A stretch of DNA of 64,000 nt, from positions 310,001 to 374,000 of the forward strand of contig LODT01000006.1 of NCBI GenBank assembly GCA_001606155.1. The letters are read 5' to 3'. Shown piece after piece: positions 31,727-59,512 of the stretch. Under the pieces are notes generated by a model. It worked only from the letters and a program-made list of their open reading frames with translations, had not been told where the DNA came from and searched no databases. Position 1 is the stretch's first letter. The number at the start of each line of letters is the position of its first letter. The DNA is from Tieghemostelium lacteum (Eukaryota; Evosea; Eumycetozoa; Dictyosteliales; Raperosteliaceae). The position numbers and the translations under genes are program-made.

Positions 31727-33600
31727 ATGGATCAATTTCAAGCAGTATTTAATAATAAATTTATAAGATTAAAGATTTTAAATAGAATTACAAGGATAAT
31801 AGATTTATTAAGGCTAATGTTTACCTCATCACGAATGATGACATTGATAAAATCAACACTTCCAACCATGATAATCACAATGAATTTAAATAAAATTATG
31901 AGAAAGAATATGGTAGAAATAATCAAATATTTCTCTGTTGTACATAAACTAGTATTATACAGCCCCAATGTAGAATGTATATTACAATTAAAGAGTATTG
32001 ATATATTAGAACTACAATATTTTAGTTGTCCAAAAGATGATGAAGATTCTGTGCTACAACATTTATCAACTGTTGTAAATGATGAACTAATACTCAACAA
32101 CTATCAAATAACAACCATTAATAATAATAATATAGAATCATTAAAAAGAATCTATCAACGGATAAAGAGATTGCATTTAGATCGACTATCTTCACAGTTT
32201 ATGAAATTCGATAACTATGATCATATCACTTCATTGAAAACTAAATGTATCACTAATTCATCAAGTTACTACTTCCAAAGGTTTACAATATACAAAAGCA
32301 GAACTCCAATAGAAACCAAACCTGTAACATTACCAATACACATTCCTCAATTTCTCTCACAAAAACACTTTTCATCACTTCAAGAGTTGTGTTTAAACAG
32401 TATATCTATTGATGATGAAATTCTATTGAATCTCTCCAAATCATCAAAACTACAAATATTATCTCTAAAAAACAGTGATAGAGTGACAGATGTTGGATTA
32501 ATAGCACTATGTCATCAACTTTCAAAATTGGTTGTTTATAAACTCTCAGAGATTACTGACCGATCACTCTCACATTGCTTTATGTTACGAGATTTATTCA
32601 TTTCAAAATGTCCCAAAGTACGAGGTGACTGTTTTCAAATTCTTTGTAACACATTGGAGAGTATTGATCTTGGAAGTTCATTGAAATATATTCAACCAAA
32701 TAAATATTTTGACTCTTATCAATGTTTTTCCAAGATCCCAAAAGTTAAAGTGTCAATGGAAAACTATGATCTTGAAAATGATTGGGATCCCGTGAACCCC
32801 TACTCACATTTACCATTGCTAACACATATTGATGAGGTTCATAGTAGCAGTGATCTGTCAGATGAGATACTATCACAATTCACAAGAATTCAGAGTCTAG
32901 GATTCGGTACCCGTGGATATCATACTGCTTATACTGACCAAGGTATTAAACAAATGATTGAAAACAGAGATCCCAATGCTGGTGTGATTGAAATTTTCAT
33001 TTTGGATAGTAATCTAATAACTGATCTCTCATTGCAATATCTAAGCCAAGTACCAATTCAGAGACTTGAAATACATTGTAAAATTACTGCTCAAGGAATG
33101 AAATATTTAAATGGAATTGATGAAATTGAATTGGATCTAGAAGTGACAGATGAACATCTAAAGAATATTCCTAATGTTAAATCACTCGAATTTTGGAGTA
33201 AAAAGGATGGTGTCACTGCAACAGGTATTTCATATCTATCTAACCTTAGATTTATTAGAATTTCATACCCCAACTTTCCATTAAATGCATTTCAACATCT
33301 TTCAACTATTGATACACTATTTGTCGATGAGTGGGAAGATCCAATTCCATTTCATGTCACTCAACTTCTAAAAGGATTAGTAGAAGTCTTTGAAAACGGT
33401 GATTGTAATTTTTTGCAACCTGAAGATGATAAAGAAGATTCAGAAAATAAATTATTTCTCTTAAGAAACGGTGTTTCTTGTGAAACTTATTAATATTAAA
33501 AATAAACCGGCCCTCATTGTAGAATGGTCGAATGGGTGTTTAATAATTAAAATATTTGACAAGAGAAAGAAAATGTATATAAATAATTATAATTTTCATT
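31705..33600 (+). repeat. Tandem duplication unit, copy 1
   Basis: The segment from about 20 bp before the LRR start to about 100 bp past its stop is closely repeated at about 34351-36275. Shared 3' flank includes TCATTGTAGAATGGTCGAAT (33517) and AATATTTGACAAGAGAAAGA (33551). The copies are collinear, with small indels. Confidence 0.85.
31727..33493 (+). CDS. Leucine-rich-repeat protein, copy 1 of a tandem pair
   Basis: A single exon of 588 residues. From about residue 210 there are regular LRRs of the F-box/LRR (cysteine-containing) style: LQELCLNSISIDDEILLNLS, LQILSLKNSDRVTDVGLIAL, LVVYKLSEITDRSLSH and LRDLFISKCPKVRGDCF, with more towards the C-terminus (LDSNLITDLSLQYLSQ, LRFIRISYPNFPLNAF). 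The N-terminal ~100 residues are Met/Ile/Leu-rich helical and could be a degenerate F-box, but no F-box consensus is visible. There is no signal peptide. FBXL-type proteins are substrate receptors of SCF ubiquitin ligases; that role is only a possibility here. Copy 2 lies 0.9 kb downstream. Confidence 0.75.
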   Translation: MDQFQAVFNNKFIRLKILNRITRIIDLLRLMFTSSRMMTLIKSTLPTMIITMNLNKIMRKNMVEIIKYFSVVHKLVLYSPNVECILQLKSIDILELQYFSCPKDDEDSVLQHLSTVVNDELILNNYQITTINNNNIESLKRIYQRIKRLHLDRLSSQFMKFDNYDHITSLKTKCITNSSSYYFQRFTIYKSRTPIETKPVTLPIHIPQFLSQKHFSSLQELCLNSISIDDEILLNLSKSSKLQILSLKNSDRVTDVGLIALCHQLSKLVVYKLSEITDRSLSHCFMLRDLFISKCPKVRGDCFQILCNTLESIDLGSSLKYIQPNKYFDSYQCFSKIPKVKVSMENYDLENDWDPVNPYSHLPLLTHIDEVHSSSDLSDEILSQFTRIQSLGFGTRGYHTAYTDQGIKQMIENRDPNAGVIEIFILDSNLITDLSLQYLSQVPIQRLEIHCKITAQGMKYLNGIDEIELDLEVTDEHLKNIPNVKSLEFWSKKDGVTATGISYLSNLRFIRISYPNFPLNAFQHLSTIDTLFVDEWEDPIPFHVTQLLKGLVEVFENGDCNFLQPEDDKEDSENKLFLLRNGVSCETY

Positions 33601-34063: not shown

Positions 34064-34350
34064 TTGATTGAGTTATTATACTAAATCTTACTAGAATATA
34101 TTTTAATAAAAAAAAGAATAATAATTGATCAAACATAATTCAGATAATAATTTCAATGTCTTGTCATTTTTTATCAAATCAAAACCACATTTATAAAATC
34201 TTTAGATTTTTGAATTAATATTTTTATTTTGGCTTTGGTCGACCAATAGAAATTTGTATATTTTCACAAATTACCATTTGAAAAAGGACAATAGAAAACT
34301 GATTTTTAATTTTTTTAATGAATTATTAAAAATCATGGTCATTAAAAAAT

Positions 34351-36275
34351 ACACTTTAATTTACCAAATAGTAATGGATCAATTTCAAGCAGTATTTAAT
34401 AATAAATTTATAAGATTAAAGATTTTAAATAGTATTACAAGGATAATAGATTTATTAAGGCTAATGTTTACCTCATCACGAATGATGACATTGATAAAAT
34501 CAACACTTCCAACCATGATAATCACAATGAATTTAAATAAAATTATGAGAAAGAATATGGTAGAAATAATCAAATATTTCTCTGTTGTACATAAACTAGT
34601 ATTATACAGCCCCAATGTAGAATGTATATTACAATTAAAGAGTATTGATATATTAGAACTACAAGAATTTAGTTGTCCAAAAGAACATGAAGAATCTGTA
34701 CTACAACATTTATCAACTGTTGTAAATGATGAACTAATACTCAACAACTATCAAATAACAACCATTAATAATAATATAGAATCATTAAAAGGAATCTATC
34801 AACGGATAAAGAGATTGCATTTAGATCGACTATCTTCACAGTTTATGAAATTCGATAACTATGATCATATCACTTCATTGAAAACAACATGTACCACTAT
34901 AAGAAGATACGTTGAGATAGAAGAAGGAGGTCCTTCACGTTACTTAAAAAACACCTTAAAAAGCAAAACTCCAATAGAAACCATTCCTATAACATTACCA
35001 ACACACATTCCTCAATTTCTCTCTCAAAAACACTTTTCATCACTTCAAGAGTTGTGTTTAAACAGTAAATCTATTAATGATGAAATTCTATTGAATCTCT
35101 CCAAATCATCAAAACTAAAAATATTATCTCTAAAAAACAGTGATAAAGTGACAGATATTGGATTAATAGCACTATGTCATCATCTTTCAAAATTGGTTGT
35201 CTATAATCTCTCAGAGATTACTGACCGATCACTCTCACATTGCTTTATGTTACGAGATTTGTTCATTTCTGAATGCCCCAAAGTACGAGGTGATTGTTTT
35301 CAAATTCTTTGTAACACATTGGAGAGTATTGATCTTGGAAAATCATTGAAATATATTCAACCAAATAAATATTATGACTCTTATCAATGTTTTTCCAAGA
35401 TCCGAAAAGTTAGTGTGTCAATGGAAAACTATGATGATCTTGAAAATGATTGGGATCCCATGAACCTCTACTCACATTTACCATTGCTAACACATATTGA
35501 TAGGGTTGCAAGTAGCCGTGATCTATCAGATGAGATACTATCACAATTGACAAGAATTCAGAGACTGGAATTCGATAGCTTTGGAATTAATACTAGGTAT
35601 ACTGACCAAGGTATTAAACAAATGATTGATAACAGAGATCCCAATGCTGGTGTGATTGAACTTTCATTTTGGACAGTAATCTAATAACTGATCTCTCATT
35701 GCAATATCTAAGCCAAGTACAAATTCAGAGACTTGAAATCTTAGATTGTAAAATTACTGCTCAAGGAATGAAATATTTAAATGGAATTGATGAAATTGAA
35801 TTACGTCTAAACACAACAGATGAACATCTAAAGAATATTCCCAATGTCAAAGCACTCGAACTTGGGAGCTGTAAGGATAGTTTCACAGCAACAGGTATTT
35901 CATATCTATCTAACCTTAGATTTATTAGAATTTCAAACCCCAACTTTCCATTAAATGCATTTCAACATCTTTCAACTATTGATACACTATTTGTCGATAC
36001 TCGGGAAAATCCAATTCCATTTCATATCACTCAACTTCTCAAAGGATTGGTAGAAGTCGTTGAAAACGATTGTAATTTTTTGCAATCTGAAGATGATGAA
36101 GAAGATTCAGAAAATAAATTATTTCTCTTAAGAAACGGTGTTACTTGGACATATGCTTTTTAATATTAAAAATACATGGCTCTCATTGTAGAATGGTCGA
36201 ATGGTTCAATAACTGTGTTTAATAATTAAAATATTTGACAAGAGAAAGATAATGTATATAATAGTTATAATTACA
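34351..36275 (+). repeat. Tandem duplication unit, copy 2
   Basis: Counterpart of 31705-33600. It begins with CTTTAATTTACCAAATAGTA and keeps the same 3' flank (TCATTGTAGAATGGTCGAAT near 36182, AATATTTGACAAGAGAAAGA near 36230) before similarity fades. Confidence 0.85.
34374..36163 (+). pseudogene. Leucine-rich-repeat gene, copy 2, with one frame break
   Basis: A close paralog of the LRR gene at 31727, sharing the start MDQFQAVFNNKFIRLKIL and nearly all repeats. Reading runs from 34374 to a stop at 35682-35684. The downstream part (to 36163) continues in another frame with DLSLQYLSQVQIQRLEIL and ends with a different tail. Aligned to copy 1 (GAA ATT TTC ATT TTG GAT AGT), copy 2 has lost one base near 35661-35665, giving early termination at about 436 residues. 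The rest shows no decay, so the break is recent or is a sequencing error. A truncated LRR protein could still be made. Divergence from copy 1 is concentrated at 34880-34970 and in scattered substitutions within repeats. Confidence 0.75.
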
Positions 36276-49946: not shown

Positions 49947-52082
49947 TTATATGAATAGATTAAAAATGAAAATGAAAATGAAAATATAAATATTCAATAG
50001 TGATGGGATTAATCTTAAAGATCTATTGGATAACCTTGAACTCTTTTTCAAAGGACGATCAGCAAATTTAATTGCATTAATTCTACCTATATGAAGTTTA
50101 CCTTGATACTGGTCATTGTCAGTCGACAATATGATGGCATTGATTTCCTCATTATTGTTTACAGATAAATCAAACCAAGGAATAACTAAATCCACCCATT
50201 TATTATTGGGAAATTCTCCACCGAGGAAATTTGATAAGGTAATGGGAAGATAATCAATTTGATTGACTTGTACATTCAGTAGCATTCTAGGTTCAACTTG
50301 TTCAGTTTGATGCATATCGTCTGATGCCTCTCCATTTGGGAACTGATATTCAACATTCGGTATATACATTACCGATATTAACAAACCATCGTATTCCGTT
50401 GTTGACAATGTACCATTTTCAAAAGACATTATCATATTATTTGGTTTTTTAACATACCAAAGAATGGTATTACTTCTAGAGTTACTAGATGATCTGTACA
50501 GTTCTTGCTTCGATTTAAAATCTACACCGGTACTATAGTTCCCATTAGCACCGTTTTTCAAACGTCCACTTTCATAGTAACTAATAGATTTCTCTCTATT
50601 AAGACAAACAGTACCATTACTGAAATGGACATCATCAACATAAACCATACCAAGATATGCTGAATACGTCTCGGCAAATGAAAATCCTACTAGATACTTT
50701 GTACCAGTTTTGTAACTTATAGATCTCAATGGTAACACTACACGTTTCCATTCATCCTTTTTAATGCCACCTCTAATATAGTTACCCAAATTAATGTTTC
50801 CAACTATAGTTCTATTAAGACCTATCATATTGATTACAATCTGTTGACCTCCAATCTTACCACCGTTAATCCAAAACACGAGATACTTGTGCTTCCAAAT
50901 TGTGAATTGTTTACGACTGTGGAAATAAATCATGGTTCTCTCTTTAATATCAAATGCCAGACCATTCTCACCGTTTTTTCTAGCTTCTGGTGTTATTCTA
51001 ATGAGTGTCTGTGATTTGTCTTCCCAAGGTTTAACAAAACTATCATTGAATACAAATTCAGGTCTTGAATATGTGCAACGATCTTTGTTGAATAAAAGTG
51101 GGTTGGGGGTCCAATGGTAAGGCTCTTGAGTTGGTTGAATGGTTTTATTAGTACATGGAGCTGCTGCATAGGAGATTGAGTGGATATAGGCTATAGCAGG
51201 TAGCTGTTTGTTACTAATGGCATGGTCAAGAGTAGGGTCATTATATATTGAAGTGTACATTCTTAGAGGTGGTGATGGGAGGATACTGTCCTGTTCCCAA
51301 TCTTGTTTGTATTGGCCTAAAAGTACACCATTAATGTACCAACTAATTTTGAATTCGGTAAGATTAAAGGTCAGAGTCAAGAATTTATTAGCATCAAATG
51401 AAATTGAAGTTTGGTTTTGGTATTGATAACGTTCGGAATAGCATCCAAAATAGATCATACTGGAATTGGAGTTAAAACGAAAGTAAACCTCTGACAATAA
51501 TCTTCCAGGAAGGTTATTAGATGCATAACAACTTGTTATTACACCTGGTGTTTGTGATGGTTTTACTGTAAATGTATAGGCACCATATCCAAGGTCATTA
51601 GAAGTCGAAGCTTCAGCACAACGGTAATCGTAATTGTTACAATTATTTGGACAACCTTGTCTGTCAAGTAACAGTTTCATTACTGCTTTTCCACCTTCTA
51701 CAAAATAACTTAGAGAATTATTTATATTAAGACCACATAAATAGGGTGTGTACAATAATGAACGTGGTATAGCTCCGAATGCTGAATTTGAACCTGTCAT
51801 TGTTAAATTGAAACTTGAAGGACAGAATCGAGGTAGATTATCAGTAGTATCATCTCCTCCATCTCCATAGAGTCCTTCACCACCCTCTATTACTGATTCT
51901 GTACTATCTGCATATTCAAATGACTCCTCATCATCTATACTATCTTCAGATGCTTCATGGCTATGTTGTTTAGCAGTAGGTATTTTATCTAGAGTTGCAC
52001 CATCTGCCTGTATTGTACTATTACAAAATTTTCCACTAATTATTAAAAATAAAAATACAATAATAAAGGTTTTTGATAACAT
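49947..52082 (-). CDS. Secreted GH16-like/carbohydrate-binding-like glycoprotein, array member 1
   Basis: A single exon of 711 residues. Signal peptide MLSKTFIIVFLFLIISGKFC, then an acidic Asp/Glu/Ser/Gly segment to about residue 85. Residues ~88-310 form a lectin-like module with a conserved cysteine block (RQGCPNNCNNYDYRCAEA), GYGAYTFTVKPSQTPGVITS and TFNLTEFKISWYINGVLLG, which parallels GH16 CRH-type glucanases (YG.vevvMKA..GiVSS; W.vDG). Where GH16 has E-I-D-W-E it reads SEVYFRF. Two more beta-rich modules follow (~325-500 and ~505-680), each with a YVDDVHFSNG- or HIGRIN-type strand and W..vvlPl. The C-terminus is hydrophobic (IYIFIFIFIFNLFI), a GPI or membrane anchor. Many N-x-S/T sequons. 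Last gene of a four-member minus-strand array. Confidence 0.8.
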   Translation of the reverse strand: MLSKTFIIVFLFLIISGKFCNSTIQADGATLDKIPTAKQHSHEASEDSIDDEESFEYADSTESVIEGGEGLYGDGGDDTTDNLPRFCPSSFNLTMTGSNSAFGAIPRSLLYTPYLCGLNINNSLSYFVEGGKAVMKLLLDRQGCPNNCNNYDYRCAEASTSNDLGYGAYTFTVKPSQTPGVITSCYASNNLPGRLLSEVYFRFNSNSSMIYFGCYSERYQYQNQTSISFDANKFLTLTFNLTEFKISWYINGVLLGQYKQDWEQDSILPSPPLRMYTSIYNDPTLDHAISNKQLPAIAYIHSISYAAAPCTNKTIQPTQEPYHWTPNPLLFNKDRCTYSRPEFVFNDSFVKPWEDKSQTLIRITPEARKNGENGLAFDIKERTMIYFHSRKQFTIWKHKYLVFWINGGKIGGQQIVINMIGLNRTIVGNINLGNYIRGGIKKDEWKRVVLPLRSISYKTGTKYLVGFSFAETYSAYLGMVYVDDVHFSNGTVCLNREKSISYYESGRLKNGANGNYSTGVDFKSKQELYRSSSNSRSNTILWYVKKPNNMIMSFENGTLSTTEYDGLLISVMYIPNVEYQFPNGEASDDMHQTEQVEPRMLLNVQVNQIDYLPITLSNFLGGEFPNNKWVDLVIPWFDLSVNNNEEINAIILSTDNDQYQGKLHIGRINAIKFADRPLKKSSRLSNRSLRLIPSLLNIYIFIFIFIFNLFI

Positions 52083-52412
52083 CCTATCAATTCAAATAAA
52101 TTAATACTCATTATAAATTGTAAAATTAAAGAGATATATATTTATAGGTTACCTTTAGAAAGTTTTATAAATTCGAATTTATAAAATATAGAATGAATTA
52201 AAAATAATAATAGATTTACATTCTTATTTCTTTATAATATTGTTTACCACATTTATTTCTTTTAATTTTTCAATTATTTCTAAAGAATTGTGGAATAGTG
52301 GGTCTATGAAATAAAATGGGGGTGTTAAGTCAGTAGAAAATGATAAAAAAGGAAAATTTTTAATTTTAGGTGGGTGAGTTAAAATAGATATCTACATTTG
52401 ATAATGTTTATT
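52083..52412. other. Intergenic spacer between array members 1 and 2
   Basis: About 330 bp, A/T-rich, holding the promoter of member 1. Two GT-rich boxes, ATGGGGGTGTTAAG (~52317) and GGTGGGTGAGTTAAAA (~52369), resemble the cluster at 18014. No gene seen. Confidence 0.45.
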
Positions 52413-54605
52413 TTAAGAAATGAGTAGTAAAATTATACATAATAATAATATTAAATTAAAATTGATTGAATTTATAAAAGGTATTGAGAATGAGGTTTCT
52501 TTTGGGGGATCAGCATATTTTACAGCTTCTATTCTACCAAAATAGAATACACCAGTATATTGTTGAATTTCAGAATAGAATTGAATAGCATTGATTTCCT
52601 GACCATCACCACATGATAAGTCACTGAATGGAATGGTTAAATCAAGCCATGTACCATTTGGAAACTTTCCACCTACATATTCAGACAAACCAATAGCTAA
52701 ATAAGGCTGTTGATCAATTTGAACTGCCAATAGTGATTTAGGTTCATATGGTGATAGTGCATCCTCTGGATAATAGGATGGTTCTCTGGATGGTTGGAAT
52801 AATACAGATACACGAATTGCTTCATGTTGATTAGTATTTATAGTCCCATTTTCAAAACTAATGACTAATTTGTTGGCTTCTGAGACTCTCCATTCAATGG
52901 TTTTGAATTGTTTATCTGCAACTTGTATTCTTTCACCAGTACTTTGAATATCTACACTACCAATACTATAATTACTGTTAGCACCATTGACTAATTTACC
53001 TTTTTGATAGTACATTATAGATTGGGTTTCATCGACACAATTGGTACCATTACTTAGATAGATATCATCAATGTACACTTGACCGAGATAGGTAGAGTAG
53101 ATATTCTTAAACACAAAACCAGTCAGATACTCAACATCTTTGACTAACAATTTCATCTTGTGTAATGGTAATATAACTTTATACCAACGATTCATTCTAA
53201 CTCCACCACCTATATAGTCATTTAATGAGAATGATCCTACCACTGTATTATTATTACCATTAACTAACCCAGTAACGGATATCAACATATCACAATGAGG
53301 TGTATCACCAGCATTAAACCAAAATGTAAGATATTTGTGTTGTTTAACTGACCATCCAACAGTGCTTTGGAAGAATATAGTAGTATCACCAGCTAAATCA
53401 AATCTAATTGAAGTAAGTCCATTTTTAACTAACTCCTCAGCATCCATTTGGCGCATAGATAATGATTTGTCAGTCCAGTCAGTGGATAGAGTGTCATTGT
53501 AAATCCATTGGATTCTAGTATAGGTACAATTACTCATGAAATACCATAAAGGTGACTTGGGATCCCAGTCAAAGAGTGGACCTTGGCCTTCTTTGCAATG
53601 TGTACTGGTTTGATAGGACATGGCTTTAACCTCAGATTGTACTGGAAGTTTATTTGGATCTACACGTGCAGTCTCATCATTGAAAATTGCAGAATTGAAA
53701 TGGTAAGGTGGTTTAGGTACAGAGTTCATTGTAACTTCATCAACTTTTTGTGAATTGACAATATACTCAATACTATGATTAGTTAGAATTATAGTATAGT
53801 TATTGAATTCATAATTGTTAGGAAGTCCATGAGTTTTTGTAATTTTATCATAACCGTATTGAACTTTACTTCCAAAGATTCTAAAGAATATTTCAGAATG
53901 TTGATTTTTTACAAAACAACTGGTTACTACAGCTGATAGATTACTATGTTTAATTAGGCATGAATAAGTACCATAAGAAGACTCCATTGTAGACTGAATT
54001 TGTGAACAACTATAGTCCAATGAATTACAATTTCCTGGACACCCTGTATGATCAATGGACAATGAAAGTGTATCCTCACCAAACTTAACTAAATCCTCAG
54101 ACAACATACATTTTCTATAACCATAAGTGTCATCCAATGATTTAAATACCATAGTTTCAGTATCATTTTTCATTTCTTGTCTATAACTTCTATAACATTT
54201 AGTATTAGATGAAGATGTTGGTGATATTGTACTCTTTGGTATTGATGTGTTTTCCTTTAAAATTTCAGAATTACTAGATGATTCTACGGAATCTTGTTGT
54301 TGCTGTTGTTGTTGTGGTGGTTTAGGGGTTGAAGTTGGTTTATTGGTACTACTACTATGTGGAGTTGGTGTAGGTTTCATAGTAGGTTTTGGTTTATTGG
54401 TGAGATATGGTTTCAAAGTCTCTGGAATAATTTTTGGTAAGGTATCACCAACTTCCTCTGAAATATCATTTGCAATTGGTTTTAATGTCTCTGGTATAAA
54501 TGGTTTTAATGATTCTCCTATAGATTCCAAAGGACCATTCTGTAATTCACCATTTATAATACCCAATAATAAAAGTAGAAATACCATCGAATATATTCTC
54601 TTCAT
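52413..54605 (-). CDS. Secreted GH16-like/carbohydrate-binding-like glycoprotein, array member 2
   Basis: A single exon of 730 residues with signal peptide (MKRIYSMVFLLLLLGIINGE). Residues ~25-75 contain repeated ETLKP motifs (PFIPETLKPIANDISEEVGD and a second copy), and residues ~70-145 are a Pro/Thr/Lys/Ser/Gln linker likely to be O-glycosylated. The lectin-like module keeps the HTGCPGNCNSLDYSCSQI block and YGTYSCLIKHSN..VVTSC. The GH16 catalytic position reads HSEIFFRIFG. The two C-terminal modules are homologous to those of the other members (YIDDIYLSNGTNC, YFGRIEAVKYADPP). It ends in a hydrophobic tail (FNLILLLCIILLLIS). It is the most divergent of the four at the N-terminus, lacking the usual YSPY-CGL block (YGYRKCML instead). 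Confidence 0.8.
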   Translation of the reverse strand: MKRIYSMVFLLLLLGIINGELQNGPLESIGESLKPFIPETLKPIANDISEEVGDTLPKIIPETLKPYLTNKPKPTMKPTPTPHSSSTNKPTSTPKPPQQQQQQQDSVESSSNSEILKENTSIPKSTISPTSSSNTKCYRSYRQEMKNDTETMVFKSLDDTYGYRKCMLSEDLVKFGEDTLSLSIDHTGCPGNCNSLDYSCSQIQSTMESSYGTYSCLIKHSNLSAVVTSCFVKNQHSEIFFRIFGSKVQYGYDKITKTHGLPNNYEFNNYTIILTNHSIEYIVNSQKVDEVTMNSVPKPPYHFNSAIFNDETARVDPNKLPVQSEVKAMSYQTSTHCKEGQGPLFDWDPKSPLWYFMSNCTYTRIQWIYNDTLSTDWTDKSLSMRQMDAEELVKNGLTSIRFDLAGDTTIFFQSTVGWSVKQHKYLTFWFNAGDTPHCDMLISVTGLVNGNNNTVVGSFSLNDYIGGGVRMNRWYKVILPLHKMKLLVKDVEYLTGFVFKNIYSTYLGQVYIDDIYLSNGTNCVDETQSIMYYQKGKLVNGANSNYSIGSVDIQSTGERIQVADKQFKTIEWRVSEANKLVISFENGTINTNQHEAIRVSVLFQPSREPSYYPEDALSPYEPKSLLAVQIDQQPYLAIGLSEYVGGKFPNGTWLDLTIPFSDLSCGDGQEINAIQFYSEIQQYTGVFYFGRIEAVKYADPPKETSFSIPFINSINFNLILLLCIILLLIS

Positions 54606-55030
54606 TCTGTTACTTTAAACTATATTATATTTAAATAATTATAGCTGAAACTATAAAAGTATGACAACAATGGACTTCTATTTAATTTTCATTATTACCA
54701 CACATTTTTCAAAGATTTTTTAATTATATTTTTCCTTAACCCCCTTTTTTAAACACTTTTCAAAGAGTGGTTCCGCATAGACAGTGTGTCATTTGAATTA
54801 AGTAATAAAAAAATATGAATTTTAGATAATTATCTTAGAGAAGGTTTTGTACATTATAATTTTTTTAATTCAATATTTTTTAAAGAAAATCAAAAACAAT
54901 TAAGATGTTTTGATACCCAACATACTTTCAACTGTATTTTGGCTTAAAAAATCAAATAGAAACTCATTAAATAAATAAATATAAACTAAAATATATGGTT
55001 ATTAATTTCGTTTTTAATTAAATTTTGTTG
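54606..55030. other. Intergenic spacer between array members 2 and 3
   Basis: About 425 bp, A/T-rich. It contains ACCACACATTTTTC (~54696), an oligo-C/T stretch (AACCCCCTTTTTT, ~54738) and AGTGGTTCCGCATAGAC (~54765) upstream of member 2. These are short and of uncertain meaning. No gene seen. Confidence 0.4.
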
Positions 55031-57157
55031 TTAAAGGATGAATAGTAATAATAAAGTAGATAGAATTACAAGTAACATATTGGCTTGAGATGTTTTGATT
55101 GCGAAAGAGTCAAGAACAGGTGGATCAGCATATTTAACAGCCTGAATTTTGGCAATGAATATAGTACTACCAGCACCATCTTGATCAGAGGTCAATTGAA
55201 GTGCATTTATACCTTCACCAGCACCACATGAGAGATCAAAGAATGGAATGACAAGTGTAGTCCATGTATCCGTTGGAAACTCACCTCCAACATACTCTGA
55301 TAGACCAATACCCATATACGGTGTTGATGCAACTTGAACTGCTATCATTGCTTTAGGTTCCAATGGAGTTTGTCTCTTCTCACCATTTGGATTGTAGTTG
55401 GTCTCGTCTGGGAGATATGGATTGGAACCTTTAGGTATATACAAAATCTTTAGTAATATTGCATCATAGTCTGAAGTGCTAAGAGTACCATTCTCAAAGG
55501 AGACAATTAATTTGTTATTTCTTGCAATTCTCCATTCAATAGTTTTGAATACATTCGTACCTGATTTAAAGAGTTCATTAGTTGAATTGAAATCTACACT
55601 TCCATAACTTCCAGCTTTGGTAGCACCGTTCTCCAAAGAACCCTTTTCATAGTATGTTACTGAAGTATCTTCATCAATACAATTGGTACCATTAGAGAAA
55701 TAAATATCATCAACAAAAACTTGGCCTAAATACTGTTTATAAGCTTGTTTGAATACAAATCCAGAGAAATGTGTAACTTCAGGATAGATTAATTTCATTG
55801 TATTCAATGGTAAAATTACCTTATACCAAGTATTCTTTTCCAAACCACCACGAATATAGTCACCAAGGTTAAATGTACCTACTATAGTATTATCATTACC
55901 TTTATAGACACCAGTCATTGCAATGATCATTTGAGGATTCAAAGTCTCACCAGCATTGATCCAAAACGATAGATAGTTATGCTTGTTGACTGACCATGAC
56001 TTATTGGTATAGAAGTACACTGTAGTCTCCTCAGTGAGATCAAAACGTATTGCAGCCTGACCAGACTTTATCAATTGGTCTTGTGCAAAGTCTCTCATCG
56101 ACAATGACTTATCTTGCCAGTTTTCATCTAGAGTGTCATTGTAGATCCATTCCACACGATCATATGTGCAATTCTTGTGGAAGTACCAAAGGGGACTTGT
56201 AGATTCCCAAGAGTATCCAGAATTGTTGATTTCCACTTTGGGACATAGTCCAGGTGTATAAGATAGTTCGGATATAAACATACTGGTTGGAAGGTTCTTT
56301 GCAGGCACTACATAATCTTTAAATTCATCATTGTAAATAGATGCAAAGAATTTCAAAGGTGGTCTAGGGATTGCAGGATTGTTGTCCCATCTACCAGCAT
56401 ATTCATCTAGTTTATTTCCATTGGCATACCAACTCACAGAACGGTTGGTTAGAACAATAGTAAAATTATTGTAGTCTAGTGGATCAAATGTAGTTTGCTT
56501 CTGTTTAAAATAACCAGATGGTACACCAGTACTTGTAAACCCATATTGAATCAGAGACTTTCCACCTGGAATTCTAAAATAGATTTCATTCAACATTCCA
56601 ACTTTTGCACTGTTACTTACAAAGCAACTGGAAATGACACCTGCTACATCAGAGGCTTTCATTACACATGTAAAAGTACCGTATTTCAATTGGTATGATG
56701 AAACTACTTGTGCACAACTGTAGTCTTTTCTATGACATTTCTCAGGACATTCATCATTATCCAATGTCAAAACCATCTCATCGTTAGAACTGAATGAAAC
56801 AGCATCTTTAGTCAAACCACATAGTCTGTAGGGACTGTAAGAAGGTGCATTTTCAACAATTGTAAAATACTTTGATTGTGAAACAAAAGAAGTCTCTTTA
56901 AATTCTTTTGGACAGAGAACTGTAGTTGAGTTTTTACTTTTACTGAGAGGAGTATCAGGTTCTAAACTATCCGAATCAATACTATTACTATTACTATTAC
57001 TACCACTGTTATCAACAAGTGGAGACAATGTAGGTTTTATAGTGGATTTTGGTTTTGTACTTTTTGTTGGTGTTGTAGGTGGAGGTGAAGCACTATCTAT
57101 AAATTGTATTACTAATGTAATTATTAAAAAGATTAATATAAATTTATTAATCTTCAT
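55031..57157 (-). CDS. Secreted GH16-like/carbohydrate-binding-like glycoprotein, array member 3
   Basis: A single exon of 708 residues. Signal peptide (MKINKFILIFLIITLVIQFI), then a Thr/Pro/Lys/Ser linker (~25-75). The lectin-like module (~80-305) has YSPYRLCGLTKDAVSF, NDECPEKCHRKDYSCAQV, KYGTFTCVMKASDVAGVISS and FTIVLTNRSVSWYANGNKLD. The GH16 catalytic site is replaced by LNEIYFRIPG: the first acid is kept, the Asp and second Glu are lost. The two following modules (~315-690) contain WYKVILPLNTMKL, GQVFVDDIYFSNGTNC, FENGTLSTSDYDAILL and GLSEYVGGEFPTDTW. A hydrophobic C-terminal tail (LLVILSTLLLLFIL) after a small-residue stretch suits a GPI signal. Confidence 0.8.
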   Translation of the reverse strand: MKINKFILIFLIITLVIQFIDSASPPPTTPTKSTKPKSTIKPTLSPLVDNSGSNSNSNSIDSDSLEPDTPLSKSKNSTTVLCPKEFKETSFVSQSKYFTIVENAPSYSPYRLCGLTKDAVSFSSNDEMVLTLDNDECPEKCHRKDYSCAQVVSSYQLKYGTFTCVMKASDVAGVISSCFVSNSAKVGMLNEIYFRIPGGKSLIQYGFTSTGVPSGYFKQKQTTFDPLDYNNFTIVLTNRSVSWYANGNKLDEYAGRWDNNPAIPRPPLKFFASIYNDEFKDYVVPAKNLPTSMFISELSYTPGLCPKVEINNSGYSWESTSPLWYFHKNCTYDRVEWIYNDTLDENWQDKSLSMRDFAQDQLIKSGQAAIRFDLTEETTVYFYTNKSWSVNKHNYLSFWINAGETLNPQMIIAMTGVYKGNDNTIVGTFNLGDYIRGGLEKNTWYKVILPLNTMKLIYPEVTHFSGFVFKQAYKQYLGQVFVDDIYFSNGTNCIDEDTSVTYYEKGSLENGATKAGSYGSVDFNSTNELFKSGTNVFKTIEWRIARNNKLIVSFENGTLSTSDYDAILLKILYIPKGSNPYLPDETNYNPNGEKRQTPLEPKAMIAVQVASTPYMGIGLSEYVGGEFPTDTWTTLVIPFFDLSCGAGEGINALQLTSDQDGAGSTIFIAKIQAVKYADPPVLDSFAIKTSQANMLLVILSTLLLLFIL

Positions 57158-57592
57158 TTTATATATATGTATATCTAAATATCAATTGAGTACTTCTCAA
57201 TGAAGATAATGTTATAGTTCTGTTTCTAAATACACAAAATAAACAAAAACAGAGTCAGAGAGATTATTCAAATGATGGTTTCGAATAACCACTACCCCTT
57301 CTACTCAACCACACTACCCCACTCAAAGATAATATAGTATTTATCTATTTTCTATTATTTATCTTATTCATTGTTTTTTTGTTTGTTGTAATCACACACC
57401 ACACTTGAAAATTTAGTGAAAATAAAAAAATTAAATGTTATAACCTTAAGAAAATTAATAATAAATGTATAAATTGTCTTTTATAGCAATAATAAAACTA
57501 TATTATTTTATTTTTAAATTTTATATAGGGATGTGGTATGAGATGATGTGAGGGTGTATTTAAAAAATATAATTATTCTACATGGTAGTGTT
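57158..57592. other. Intergenic spacer between array members 3 and 4
   Basis: About 435 bp. It contains CA/C-rich stretches upstream of member 3: CCACTACCCCTTCTACTC and CCACACTACCCCACTC (57290-57324) and ATCACACACCACACTTG (57391). They read as GT-rich on the gene's own strand and resemble the boxes upstream of the phosphatase and member 4. No gene seen. Confidence 0.45.
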
Positions 57593-59512
57593 TTATAGTA
57601 ATAATAATAACAAGGATAAGATTATAAATATACTGGAAATTTGAGTTTTTGAGGCAAATGATTCAGCTTCTTTTGGTGGATCTGCAAATTTAACAGCTTC
57701 AATTCTACCAATATAAACTACACCTTGATATTGTCCTTCCTCAGAAATGATTTGAATAGCTTGAATTTCTTCAGCATCACCGCATGAGAGATCATAGAAT
57801 GGAATAGTGAGATCAACCCATCTTTTAGTTGGGAATTCACCACCGACGTACTCTGATAAACCAACACCTTGATAATAGTTCATGTTGACTTGAACTTGAA
57901 CTTTGGCATTAATTTCTCTAGGTGGAGATGTATGTGGTTCATCTGAAGCCTCTCCATTCCATTGGAATTGATTATCTGGAATATAATAGAGACTGATAAG
58001 GAATGCATCATAATCTGTTGTACTAATAGTGCCATTCTCAAATGACATTACCATCTTGTTACTTGACATTACTCTCCATTCAATAGTTGGGTTCTTTCTA
58101 TAGAGTTGACCACGACTCTTGAAATCAACTGAACCTGTAGAATAATTACCAGCACCTCCACCAACTAATTGACCATCTTTGAAATATGCTATTGATTTCT
58201 CACGATTCAAACAAATACTACCATTGCTAAAGAATATATCATCAACAAACATTTGACCCATATATTGTTTGTATGCCTCTGAAAAGAGGAAACCAGTGAG
58301 ATATTTGGTCTCAGGTGGATTGATTTGCAAACCTTTTAGTGGTAAGATTACCTTGTACCAACGGTATGGTTTCAAACCGCCACGAACATAGTCACCCAAA
58401 TTCAATGAGGCAACTTTAGTACGATTTAGACCAATAAAGTAAATAATCATTTGTTGATTACCCAAAACACCACCATTGATCCAAAATGTCAGATATTTAT
58501 GACGATGAACTGGAAATGGTTCTGTAGATTGGAAGAATATACCAGTGTTTTCTTTAAGATCAAATGATATAGAAACTTGACCACGTTTAGGAAGGGTGTA
58601 ATCTTCAATTTTTCTGAATGAATAGGATGAATCCTCCCATGGTTCGACAAAAGATTCATTGTAGACCCACTCTGGACGCCATAAAGTACAGTTACTTGTG
58701 AAATACCATAGTGGAGAACCTGCCTCCCAGTGCCATTCATCGGTAGAGTCCTCAGAAGAGGTGTCATTTGTGCAAGGAACTGGATCATAAGACATGGAAT
58801 CGATAAAGAGTGATGTTGGAAGACTACTATTCTTTATAGACTTGTTAACGTCATTGTAAATTGCTGCAAACAATTTGAGAGGTGGCTTAGGGATAGATTT
58901 ATCACCTGACCAATCAGATGTCTTTTCAGCCAAGAGATTACCACCTACATTCCAAGTGATTCTCTTATTTGTAAAGTTGAATGTAAAGGTATTGAAATCA
59001 GTCTGAGAAAAGAAAGCATTGGTAATGGTCTTTTCAAACTTTATTCCAGCACTATTACAACCAATGATAATCTTTGAGGCATTACCAGGGACTTTGAAAT
59101 AGATATCGGCATAAGCTTCACCCTTACCGTTATTTGAAGCATAACAACTAGATATAACACCAGGGATACTAGAAGTCTTCATTACACAGCTGTAGGAACC
59201 ATAAGACAATTGTTCTAGTGAGGCAACTTCTGCACATGAGTAATCATATTGATTACAATCTTGTGGACATCCATCAATATCCAATGTCAATCGCATTGCT
59301 GATTTTTCATCTTCAGCTGTATAGTTTACTGCCTTATCAGTTAGACCACATTGATATGGACTGTATAGAGTAGTGGATTCGGCTGGTGAAAATTGATTAC
59401 TTGTGCCATCCATAATATCTTTAAATTTAAGTGGACATAATGGTGCACCAATATTTAAATTTATATTTATAAATACTACCAGTAATAGTAGTACTATTTT
59501 TTTGTTTATCAT
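57593..59512 (-). CDS. Secreted GH16-like/carbohydrate-binding-like glycoprotein, array member 4
   Basis: A single exon of 639 residues, the shortest and simplest of the array: after the signal peptide (MINKKIVLLLLVVFININLN) it enters the lectin-like module without a linker. Landmarks: TLYSPYQCGLTDKAVNY, DGCPQDCNQYDYSCAEV, SYGSYSCVMKTSSIPGVISS and FTFNFTNKRITWNVGGNLLA. The catalytic position reads AYADIYFKVPG. Following modules: ISFDLKENTGIFFQST, YLTFWINGG, WYKVILPLKGL, GQMFVDDIFFSNGSIC, FENGTISTTDYDAFLI and YIGRIEAVKFADPP. The tail is hydrophobic (SSIFIILSLLLLLL). Because it lacks extra domains it may represent the ancestral form. Members 1, 3 and 4 share the SPY/TPY-CGL block. A large 1.2-kb spacer lies upstream. 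Confidence 0.8.
   Translation of the reverse strand: MINKKIVLLLLVVFININLNIGAPLCPLKFKDIMDGTSNQFSPAESTTLYSPYQCGLTDKAVNYTAEDEKSAMRLTLDIDGCPQDCNQYDYSCAEVASLEQLSYGSYSCVMKTSSIPGVISSCYASNNGKGEAYADIYFKVPGNASKIIIGCNSAGIKFEKTITNAFFSQTDFNTFTFNFTNKRITWNVGGNLLAEKTSDWSGDKSIPKPPLKLFAAIYNDVNKSIKNSSLPTSLFIDSMSYDPVPCTNDTSSEDSTDEWHWEAGSPLWYFTSNCTLWRPEWVYNESFVEPWEDSSYSFRKIEDYTLPKRGQVSISFDLKENTGIFFQSTEPFPVHRHKYLTFWINGGVLGNQQMIIYFIGLNRTKVASLNLGDYVRGGLKPYRWYKVILPLKGLQINPPETKYLTGFLFSEAYKQYMGQMFVDDIFFSNGSICLNREKSIAYFKDGQLVGGGAGNYSTGSVDFKSRGQLYRKNPTIEWRVMSSNKMVMSFENGTISTTDYDAFLISLYYIPDNQFQWNGEASDEPHTSPPREINAKVQVQVNMNYYQGVGLSEYVGGEFPTKRWVDLTIPFYDLSCGDAEEIQAIQIISEEGQYQGVVYIGRIEAVKFADPPKEAESFASKTQISSIFIILSLLLLLL

What the first reader, a model, noticed from the sequence alone, without database searches (positions are those of the whole stretch)
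49947..59512. Four-gene tandem array of GH16-like, lectin-like surface glycoproteins
Seen: four consecutive minus-strand, intronless genes, homologous along their whole length. Each has a signal peptide, a Cys-rich module (GCP..C..YDY.CA), two further beta-rich modules ending in (V/I)DD(I/V).FSNG and (I/F)GRI.A(V/I)K(F/Y)ADPP strands, many glycosylation sequons and a hydrophobic C-terminal anchor. Family knowledge: YG-(S/T)-(Y/F)-.-C-VMK-.-PGVISS followed by a W-.-(V/A)-(D/N)G strand is the order in GH16 glucanases/CRH transglycosylases. Inference: an ancestral polysaccharide-remodelling enzyme was turned into an anchored carbohydrate-binding family and expanded by tandem duplication. Possible roles are the cellulose-rich sheath or wall, feeding on bacteria, or cell-cell recognition. 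I know of no named family with this architecture.
Basis: partly seen in the sequence, partly recalled or inferred. Interest (0 to 1): 0.75.

Follow-up and report, generated by a model that had tools for sequence, protein, structure and literature searches.

The report
Four anchored, disarmed sugar-cutting proteins
A social amoeba carries four neighbouring genes for surface-anchored proteins built like a glucan-cutting enzyme with two sugar-binding modules, but with the cutting residues and the known cellulose-gripping residues replaced, which suggests that they now recognise something instead of digesting it.

Summary
In detail: four intronless minus-strand genes (639-730 aa), homologous along their length, with signal-peptide-like starts and hydrophobic GPI-like ends. 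The "Cys-rich module" lies inside the GH16 domain. These are the only GH16 places found in the 23.3 Mb genome. In all four copies the GH16 catalytic Asp and acid/base Glu are replaced by Tyr/Phe and Arg/Lys, and module 2 keeps none of the four DdCBM8 ligand residues, although both GH9-CBM8 genes of this genome keep that aromatic face. So these are old, diverged, probably inactive GH16-CBM8-CBM8 surface proteins. My best reading is a non-cleaving lectin-like recognition protein, analogous to insect beta-glucan recognition proteins. Binding is inferred, not shown. Orthologues in other dictyostelids could not be searched. New variant of a known kind.

The parts
49947..52082 (-). g1, 711 aa: signal peptide, acidic linker, GH16-like, CBM8-like, CBM8-like, hydrophobic tail
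51144..51845 (-). g1 GH16-like domain
   Evidence: Pfam GH16 37.3 bits, cut-off 22
50592..51131 (-). g1 module 2, CBM8-like
50013..50606 (-). g1 module 3, divergent CBM8-like
52413..54605 (-). g2, 730 aa: signal peptide, Pro/Thr/Ser/Gln-rich linker, GH16-like, CBM8-like, CBM8-like, hydrophobic tail
53601..54212 (-). g2 GH16-like domain
   Evidence: 34.8 bits
53025..53585 (-). g2 module 2, CBM8-like
52461..53039 (-). g2 module 3, divergent CBM8-like
55031..57157 (-). g3, 708 aa: signal peptide, Pro/Thr/Ser-rich linker, GH16-like, CBM8-like, CBM8-like, hydrophobic tail
56237..56932 (-). g3 GH16-like domain
   Evidence: 45.8 bits
55667..56227 (-). g3 module 2, CBM8-like
55079..55681 (-). g3 module 3, divergent CBM8-like
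57593..59512 (-). g4, 639 aa: signal peptide, GH16-like, CBM8-like, CBM8-like, hydrophobic tail (no long linker)
58763..59455 (-). g4 GH16-like domain
   Evidence: 45.1 bits; BglS lichenase model 57.8 bits, below its 300-bit cut-off
58199..58747 (-). g4 module 2, CBM8-like
57635..58213 (-). g4 module 3, divergent CBM8-like; the copy that was folded
59093..59107 (-). g4 former GH16 catalytic motif D-I-Y-F-K (lichenase E-I-D-I-E)
56573..56587 (-). g3 former catalytic motif E-I-Y-F-R
53880..53894 (-). g2 former catalytic motif E-I-F-F-R
51477..51491 (-). g1 former catalytic motif E-V-Y-F-R

Best explanation
Shown by sequence: four old tandem copies of a secreted-looking protein built as signal peptide, variable linker, lichenase-type GH16 domain, CBM8-like module, second CBM8-like module, hydrophobic GPI-like tail. 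The GH16 domain lacks two of its three catalytic carboxylates in all four copies, so hydrolysis by the normal retaining mechanism is not expected. Inferred: the proteins sit GPI-anchored on the amoeba surface and work as non-cleaving recognition proteins. The GH16 groove, which keeps three aromatic positions and the lichenase cysteine pair, holds a beta-glucan-type chain (own sheath or wall cellulose or mixed glucan, or a glycan of prey or of another cell), while the two CBM8 sandwiches serve mainly as a stalk or auxiliary face. The logic is that of insect beta-glucan recognition proteins, which are also catalytically dead GH16 homologues. Confidence about 0.9 for the module architecture, 0.85 for loss of GH16 catalysis, 0.45 for glycan recognition as the job.
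For: GH16: Pfam over cut-off in 4 of 4, PDB lichenases E 6e-12; Foldseek on the weak full model also lists lichenases first. Catalytic residues: lichenase E105/D107/E109 become E (3) or D (1), Y (3) or F (1), R (3) or K (1). Kept: lichenase Cys32 and Cys61 in 4 of 4, Tyr24 in 4 of 4, Phe92 as Y/F in 4 of 4, Trp184 as Y/F in 4 of 4. Module 2: matches two GH9-CBM8, one GH5-CBM8 and one CBM8-CBM49 gene of the same genome (E 1.2e-7 to 0.003), and only DdCBM8 in the PDB (E 1.7e-4); the GH5-linked domain itself matches DdCBM8 at E 4.7e-10. Module 3: model pLDDT 69.2, pTM 0.68, best PDB match DdCBM8 E 2.5e-5, TM 0.70 by target length and 0.57 by query length; profile comparison with nine CBM8-type sequences 93%, E 3e-7. 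Maintained: full open frames, dN 0.52-0.69 against dS 1.25-2.05, the latter near saturation. Precedent for catalytically dead GH16 homologues as glucan recognition proteins: PMC6403176, passages.
Against: No binding data and no localisation. Polar groove residues are mostly lost (N26, R65, Y94, N121, N182 in 4 of 4; Y123 in 3 of 4; W103 replaced by Y, L, H, L), so glucan binding may be lost too. Module 2 keeps 0 of 4 DdCBM8 ligand residues in 4 of 4 copies. The aromatic positions kept in the groove may be fold core. Sequon enrichment is weak in three copies. The full-length model is poor (pLDDT 50.2). The direct module 2 against module 3 comparison gave only 15% probability, and module 3 has no sequence match in the PDB.
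Confidence: 0.45

Rival explanations
1. Cell-cell or kin recognition or adhesion proteins: a cellulase-type scaffold reused as a protein-binding receptor ectodomain, with no glycan binding left, diversified by tandem duplication in the way other dictyostelid adhesion families vary.
For: Both kinds of ligand site are altered: GH16 triad and CBM8 face. GPI-like tails. The four copies have diverged to 35-47% identity, and GH16 is the most diverged module (27-45%) against 38-54% for module 2 and 42-53% for module 3. Literature: in dictyostelids secreted and exposed families show much gain and loss and often serve recognition (PMC4931340, passages).
Against: dN is below dS in every pair and region, so there is no sign of diversifying selection, although dS is near saturation. 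Only four copies found. No partner known.
Confidence: 0.25
2. Structural component of the cellulose-bearing sheath, stalk or spore wall: a membrane-tethered cross-linker that ties the cell to cellulose.
For: Domains come from the cellulose toolkit: CBM8 also occurs on two GH9 and one GH5 gene and on a CBM49 protein here, and the genome has 25 CBM49 places. Luke lectins with CBM49 in Acanthamoeba cyst walls are a parallel (PMC6541295, passages).
Against: The residues whose mutation abolishes or reduces DdCBM8 binding to polysaccharides (W572, Y600, Q686; PMC9079177) are replaced in all four module 2 copies.
Confidence: 0.15
3. Still an enzyme, with an unorthodox acid/base or a different reaction (for example transglycosylation by the retained Glu).
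For: The nucleophile position keeps Glu in 3 of 4 copies (Asp in the fourth).
Against: Acid/base Glu is Arg or Lys and the assisting Asp is Tyr or Phe in 4 of 4; this part of the HMMER alignment is printed at high confidence.
Confidence: 0.07
4. Prey-capture or innate-sensing receptor for bacterial or fungal glucans, used in feeding.
For: Closest functional precedent (insect beta-glucan recognition proteins) is in innate immunity. Amoebae feed on bacteria (general knowledge).
Against: No expression or ligand data; overlaps with the best explanation and is separated from it only by the ligand.
Confidence: 0.08

Closest known systems
Bacterial lichenases, GH16 (1byh, 1mac, 1gbg; BglS)
   Same: GH16 domain over most of its length, the C32-C61 cysteine pair, Tyr24, aromatic residues at F92 and W184
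   Different: D107 and E109 replaced in 4 of 4; two-Cys insertion GCPxxC; followed by two CBM8-like modules and a hydrophobic tail
CBM8 (DdCBM8 of D. discoideum CelA, 7t7y; PMC9079177)
   Same: Sequence homology of module 2, predicted fold and profile similarity of module 3
   Different: W572, W574, Y600, Q686 replaced in module 2 of 4 of 4 copies; two modules in tandem; in alignment A4 module 2 carries an N-terminal extension with a Cys
Insect beta-glucan recognition proteins / GNBPs (dead GH16 homologues; PMC6403176, passages)
   Same: GH16 homologues without the catalytic glutamates, taken to recognise glucans
   Different: Insect ones carry a different extra domain (CBM39, recalled), work in innate immunity and arose separately; here the accessory modules are CBM8 and the protein looks membrane-anchored. 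The Aedes member without catalytic residues in that paper has no predicted signal peptide, unlike these
Fungal CRH transglycosylases (Crh5, 6ibu)
   Same: GH16 fold and GPI-type anchoring (anchoring recalled)
   Different: Much weaker sequence match (E 0.0085 against 6e-12); CRH are active enzymes (recalled)
Dictyostelid Tgr (IPT/TIG) adhesion families
   Same: Expanded surface families of dictyostelids (PMC4931340, passages)
   Different: No IPT/TIG domain listed by Pfam in the four proteins at E up to 1

Membership tests
GH16 (homology, clan) | Significant match to the curated GH16 model | tested here: met
   4 of 4 over Pfam cut-off; PDB lichenases E 6e-12 with the four-sequence profile. 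A single copy (g3) by phmmer found nothing in the PDB at E up to 1
GH16 (active enzyme) | E-x-D-x-E catalytic motif with nucleophile and acid/base Glu | tested here: not met
   [DE]-[IV]-[YF]-F-[RK] in 4 of 4
GH16 (active enzyme) | Hydrolase or transglycosylase activity | not testable with these tools
   needs expressed protein
Lichenase BglS equivalog (NF047856) | Score over the curated cut-off (300 bits) | tested here: not met
   39.8 (g3) and 57.8 bits (g4), the 2 of 4 copies submitted
CBM8, module 2 | Sequence homology to DdCBM8 and GH9-linked CBM8 | tested here: met
   E 1.7e-4 (4-sequence profile); E 1.2e-7 to 0.003 for four other genes
CBM8, module 2 | Conserved ligand residues W572, W574, Y600, Q686 | tested here: not met
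   0 of 4 kept in 4 of 4 copies; both GH9-CBM8 genes keep W, W and Q with W at the Y600 position
CBM8, module 3 | CBM8 fold and homology | tested here: met
   Foldseek best hit 7t7y E 2.5e-5 on a pLDDT 69 model of g4; hhalign 93% against A4. Against: sequence search of the PDB found nothing, module 2 alone gave 15%
CBM8 | Binding to cellulose, glucomannan or beta-glucan | not testable with these tools
   needs binding assay
GPI-anchored protein | N-terminal signal peptide plus hydrophobic C-terminal signal ending the protein | tested here: inconclusive
   hydropathy fits in 4 of 4; no dedicated predictor available
Fungal CRH family | Closest match within GH16 | tested here: not met
   lichenases score far better
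Insect beta-GRP/GNBP | Dead GH16 with glucan binding | tested here: inconclusive
   dead GH16 met; glucan binding not tested; different accessory domains, so an analogy and not membership

The most novel reading that the evidence does not exclude
A complete cellulose-toolkit enzyme (GH16-CBM8-CBM8) was disarmed at both its cutting site and its cellulose-gripping face and turned into a diversified, membrane-anchored recognition receptor of a social amoeba, possibly for partner cells, so that the multicellularity surface kit was partly recruited from dead polysaccharide enzymes.
Probability: 0.25. Interest if true: 0.65.

Novelty: new variant of a known kind. Interest (0 to 1): 0.45.

Why it matters
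If they bind glucans without cutting, they are an independent amoebal counterpart of insect beta-glucan recognition proteins. If they bind other cells, they show recruitment of dead cellulose enzymes into recognition. Either is directly testable by binding and gene removal.

Tried and rejected
Full-length structure prediction from the four paralogues gave pLDDT 50.2; its Foldseek list agrees with GH16 and also holds 7t7y, but is given little weight. Module 3 by sequence against the PDB: no sensible hit. Direct module 2 against module 3 profiles: E 0.0017 but 15% probability; accepted as CBM8 only. The A4 profile matches 7t7y at E 2.7e-30, but A4 contains the GH9-linked domains, so this is no independent evidence for the array. 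Cry11 toxin domains appear in the module 3 fold list (E 7e-5 to 2.5e-4, TM 0.37-0.39 by query length; CBM28, CBM29 and CBM30 follow at E 0.003-0.02) and were set aside as general beta-sandwich similarity. Prokaryote relatives of module 3 (34 pattern matches, 0 confirmed) and of the GH16 domain (30, 0 confirmed), and viral relatives of the whole protein (33, 0 confirmed): none. These scans need short conserved peptides, so they do not exclude distant relatives; PMC9079177 says that most CBM8 records are bacterial. Shared upstream motif among the four genes: none (0 G+C-rich 6-8-mers shared by 3 or more of the four upstream regions, up to 435 bp each). Recent duplication or gene conversion: rejected, longest shared exact DNA 13-19 bp. 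A first script to map lichenase sites drifted by about three to four columns and was replaced; the letters used are and agree with the HMMER print. Papers: nine searches. Those aimed at a dictyostelid GH16 or GH16-CBM8 family, with papers listed of papers found: 3 of 3, 30 of 31, 15 of 47, 0 of 0, 8 of 8; no title or abstract start reported such a family. One search was too broad to use (10 of 109,241). Read: PMC9079177 (abstract, introduction, results, discussion), PMC6403176 (passages), PMC6541295 (passages), PMC4931340 (passages).
Full report
WHAT IS THERE. Four open frames on the minus strand, g1 49947-52082, g2 52413-54605, g3 55031-57157, g4 57593-59512, run from ATG to stop without introns. 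They align along their length apart from a variable N-terminal linker that is absent in g4. Identity over the shared region is 35-47%; the best pairs are g1-g4 (47%) and g4-g3 and g3-g2 (46% each). Synonymous change is near saturation (dS 1.25-2.05 over the whole shared region), nonsynonymous change is lower in every pair (0.52-0.69), and the longest shared exact DNA stretch is 13-19 bp: old, maintained duplicates. Neighbours look ordinary: a KDM8/cupin-like gene and an FKBP-TPR gene on one side, a staphylococcal-nuclease/Tudor gene on the other. The genome (23.33 Mb, 43 contigs) fits in size the 23.4 Mbp (54 contigs) reported for Dictyostelium (now Tieghemostelium, recalled) lacteum in PMC4931340; the species is an inference.

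GH16 DOMAIN. Pfam GH16 is over its cut-off in 4 of 4 (37.3, 34.8, 45.8 and 45.1 bits for g1-g4 against 22), and a whole-genome search with that model finds these four places and no other (the search is exon by exon, and only the best candidates of a first look, here 4 of 4, are scored). A single copy finds nothing in the PDB by phmmer, but a profile of the four proteins finds Bacillus lichenases at E 6e-12 and the CRH enzyme 6ibu only at 0.0085. Lichenase E105/D107/E109 read D/Y/K, E/Y/R, E/F/R and E/Y/R in g4, g3, g2 and g1. Tyr24 is kept in 4 of 4, Phe92 is Y or F and Trp184 is Y or F in 4 of 4; N26 (Pro in three, gap in g2), R65, Y94, N121 and N182 are lost in 4 of 4, Y123 in 3 of 4, W103 in 4 of 4 (Tyr in g4), and E63 is E in 2 and Q in 2. 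The roles of these lichenase residues are recalled; the letters come from the calls. By established GH16 chemistry the acid/base Glu is needed, so ordinary catalysis is not expected.

C-TERMINAL MODULES. Module 2 of g4 finds, in the same genome, the three other copies and four other genes: C11 E 1.2e-7, C24 2.1e-6, C23 6.3e-5, C40 0.003. C11 and C23 are GH9 enzymes, C24 is a GH5, C40 carries CBM49. A search with the C24 module returns the same set plus C29, and one with the C40 module returns C23, C24, C11 and three array copies, the last at E 0.005-0.16. In the PDB the module 2 profile finds only 7t7y (E 1.7e-4), the CBM8 of D. discoideum CelA (PMC9079177; abstract, introduction, results and discussion read). 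The GH5-linked domain finds 7t7y at E 4.7e-10. Module 3 has no sensible sequence match in the PDB, none convincing elsewhere in the genome (C11 E 0.11) and no confirmed prokaryote relative. Its predicted fold (pLDDT 69.2, pTM 0.68) has 7t7y as best PDB match (E 2.5e-5, TM 0.70 by target, 0.57 by query), and its profile matches the nine-sequence CBM8-type alignment A4 at 93%, E 3e-7, though module 2 alone gave only 15%. A4 includes the four module 2 copies of the same proteins, so this also supports internal duplication.

LIGAND RESIDUES. PMC9079177 reports that W572A and Y600A abolish binding of DdCBM8, that Q686A reduces it, and that W574 lies in the same face but the mutant could not be made. 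The positions were taken from the C23 GH9 row of A4, whose DWSW, W and Q line up with the DdCBM8 letters printed. There the four module 2 copies have S/Y/N/S, K/L/E/K, K/L/D/K and K/Q/R/A (g4, g3, g2, g1), 0 of 16 kept, with one Tyr at W574 in g4. The GH9-linked domains of the same genome read W/W/W/Q (2 of 2) and the CBM49-linked one W/W/Y/L. Against uniqueness: the GH5-linked (W/T/E/L) and the C29 (P/F/Y/L) domains are also partly or largely changed. So the site is degenerate in some other members too, but most completely in the array.

HOW IT PROBABLY WORKS. Signal-peptide-like starts and hydrophobic ends suggest secretion and GPI anchoring. With catalysis improbable and the whole frame maintained over a long time, a recognition role is more likely than a decayed enzyme. 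I favour a lectin-like use of the GH16 groove, because aromatic positions and the cysteine pair persist, by analogy with insect GH16 homologues that lost the catalytic residues and are taken to be glucan-binding proteins (PMC6403176, passages). The step from groove to glycan is inference, and loss of polar groove residues and of the CBM8 face speaks against classical cellulose binding. A protein-binding receptor is the main rival.

REGULATION. No G+C-rich motif is shared among the upstream regions. The g3 upstream region has a cluster of G/T boxes (8 matches; 1 of 94 control windows as high), g1 has 3 (7 of 94 controls as high), g2 has 2 (11 of 94) and g4 none. The likeness to GBF-type elements of developmental genes is recalled and untested.

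NOVELTY. Searches for a GH16-CBM8 or dead GH16 dictyostelid family in open-access papers gave no such report (listings only, and 15 of 47). Subscription papers, dictyBase and other eukaryote genomes were out of reach, so an annotated but unstudied orthologue in other dictyostelids is quite possible. Each module has a known family; the combination with loss of both sites is what is new. I therefore file it as a new variant of a known kind.

Noticed in passing
L009:400-2052 + (own genome C24, about 78 kb): GH5 cellulase with a CBM8-like C-terminal domain and a hydrophobic GPI-like tail; its CBM8 ligand site is largely changed.
   Followed up: partly
L025:1117-2031 - (own genome C40, about 183 kb): 304-aa secreted-looking protein with CBM8 plus CBM49 and no catalytic domain listed by Pfam, a likely cellulose-binding matrix protein.
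   Followed up: partly
L014:1420-3315 - (C11) and L024:196-1929 + (C23): Two GH9-CBM8 genes of CelA type whose CBM8 aromatic face is kept.
   Followed up: partly
L028:1246-2037 - (own genome C29, about 53 kb): 263-aa ORF with a divergent CBM8-like domain and no Pfam match.
   Followed up: partly
own genome, 25 places: CBM49 cellulose-binding domain found at 25 places, all over the cut-off: a large cellulose-binding repertoire.
   Followed up: no
window 57158-57592: Cluster of G/T boxes upstream of g3, reminiscent of developmental G-boxes (recalled).
   Followed up: partly
window 31727-33493 and 34335-35684, + strand: Two neighbouring, closely similar ORFs, leucine-rich-repeat-like in look, the second shorter: perhaps a recent tandem duplicate (by eye only).
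   Followed up: no
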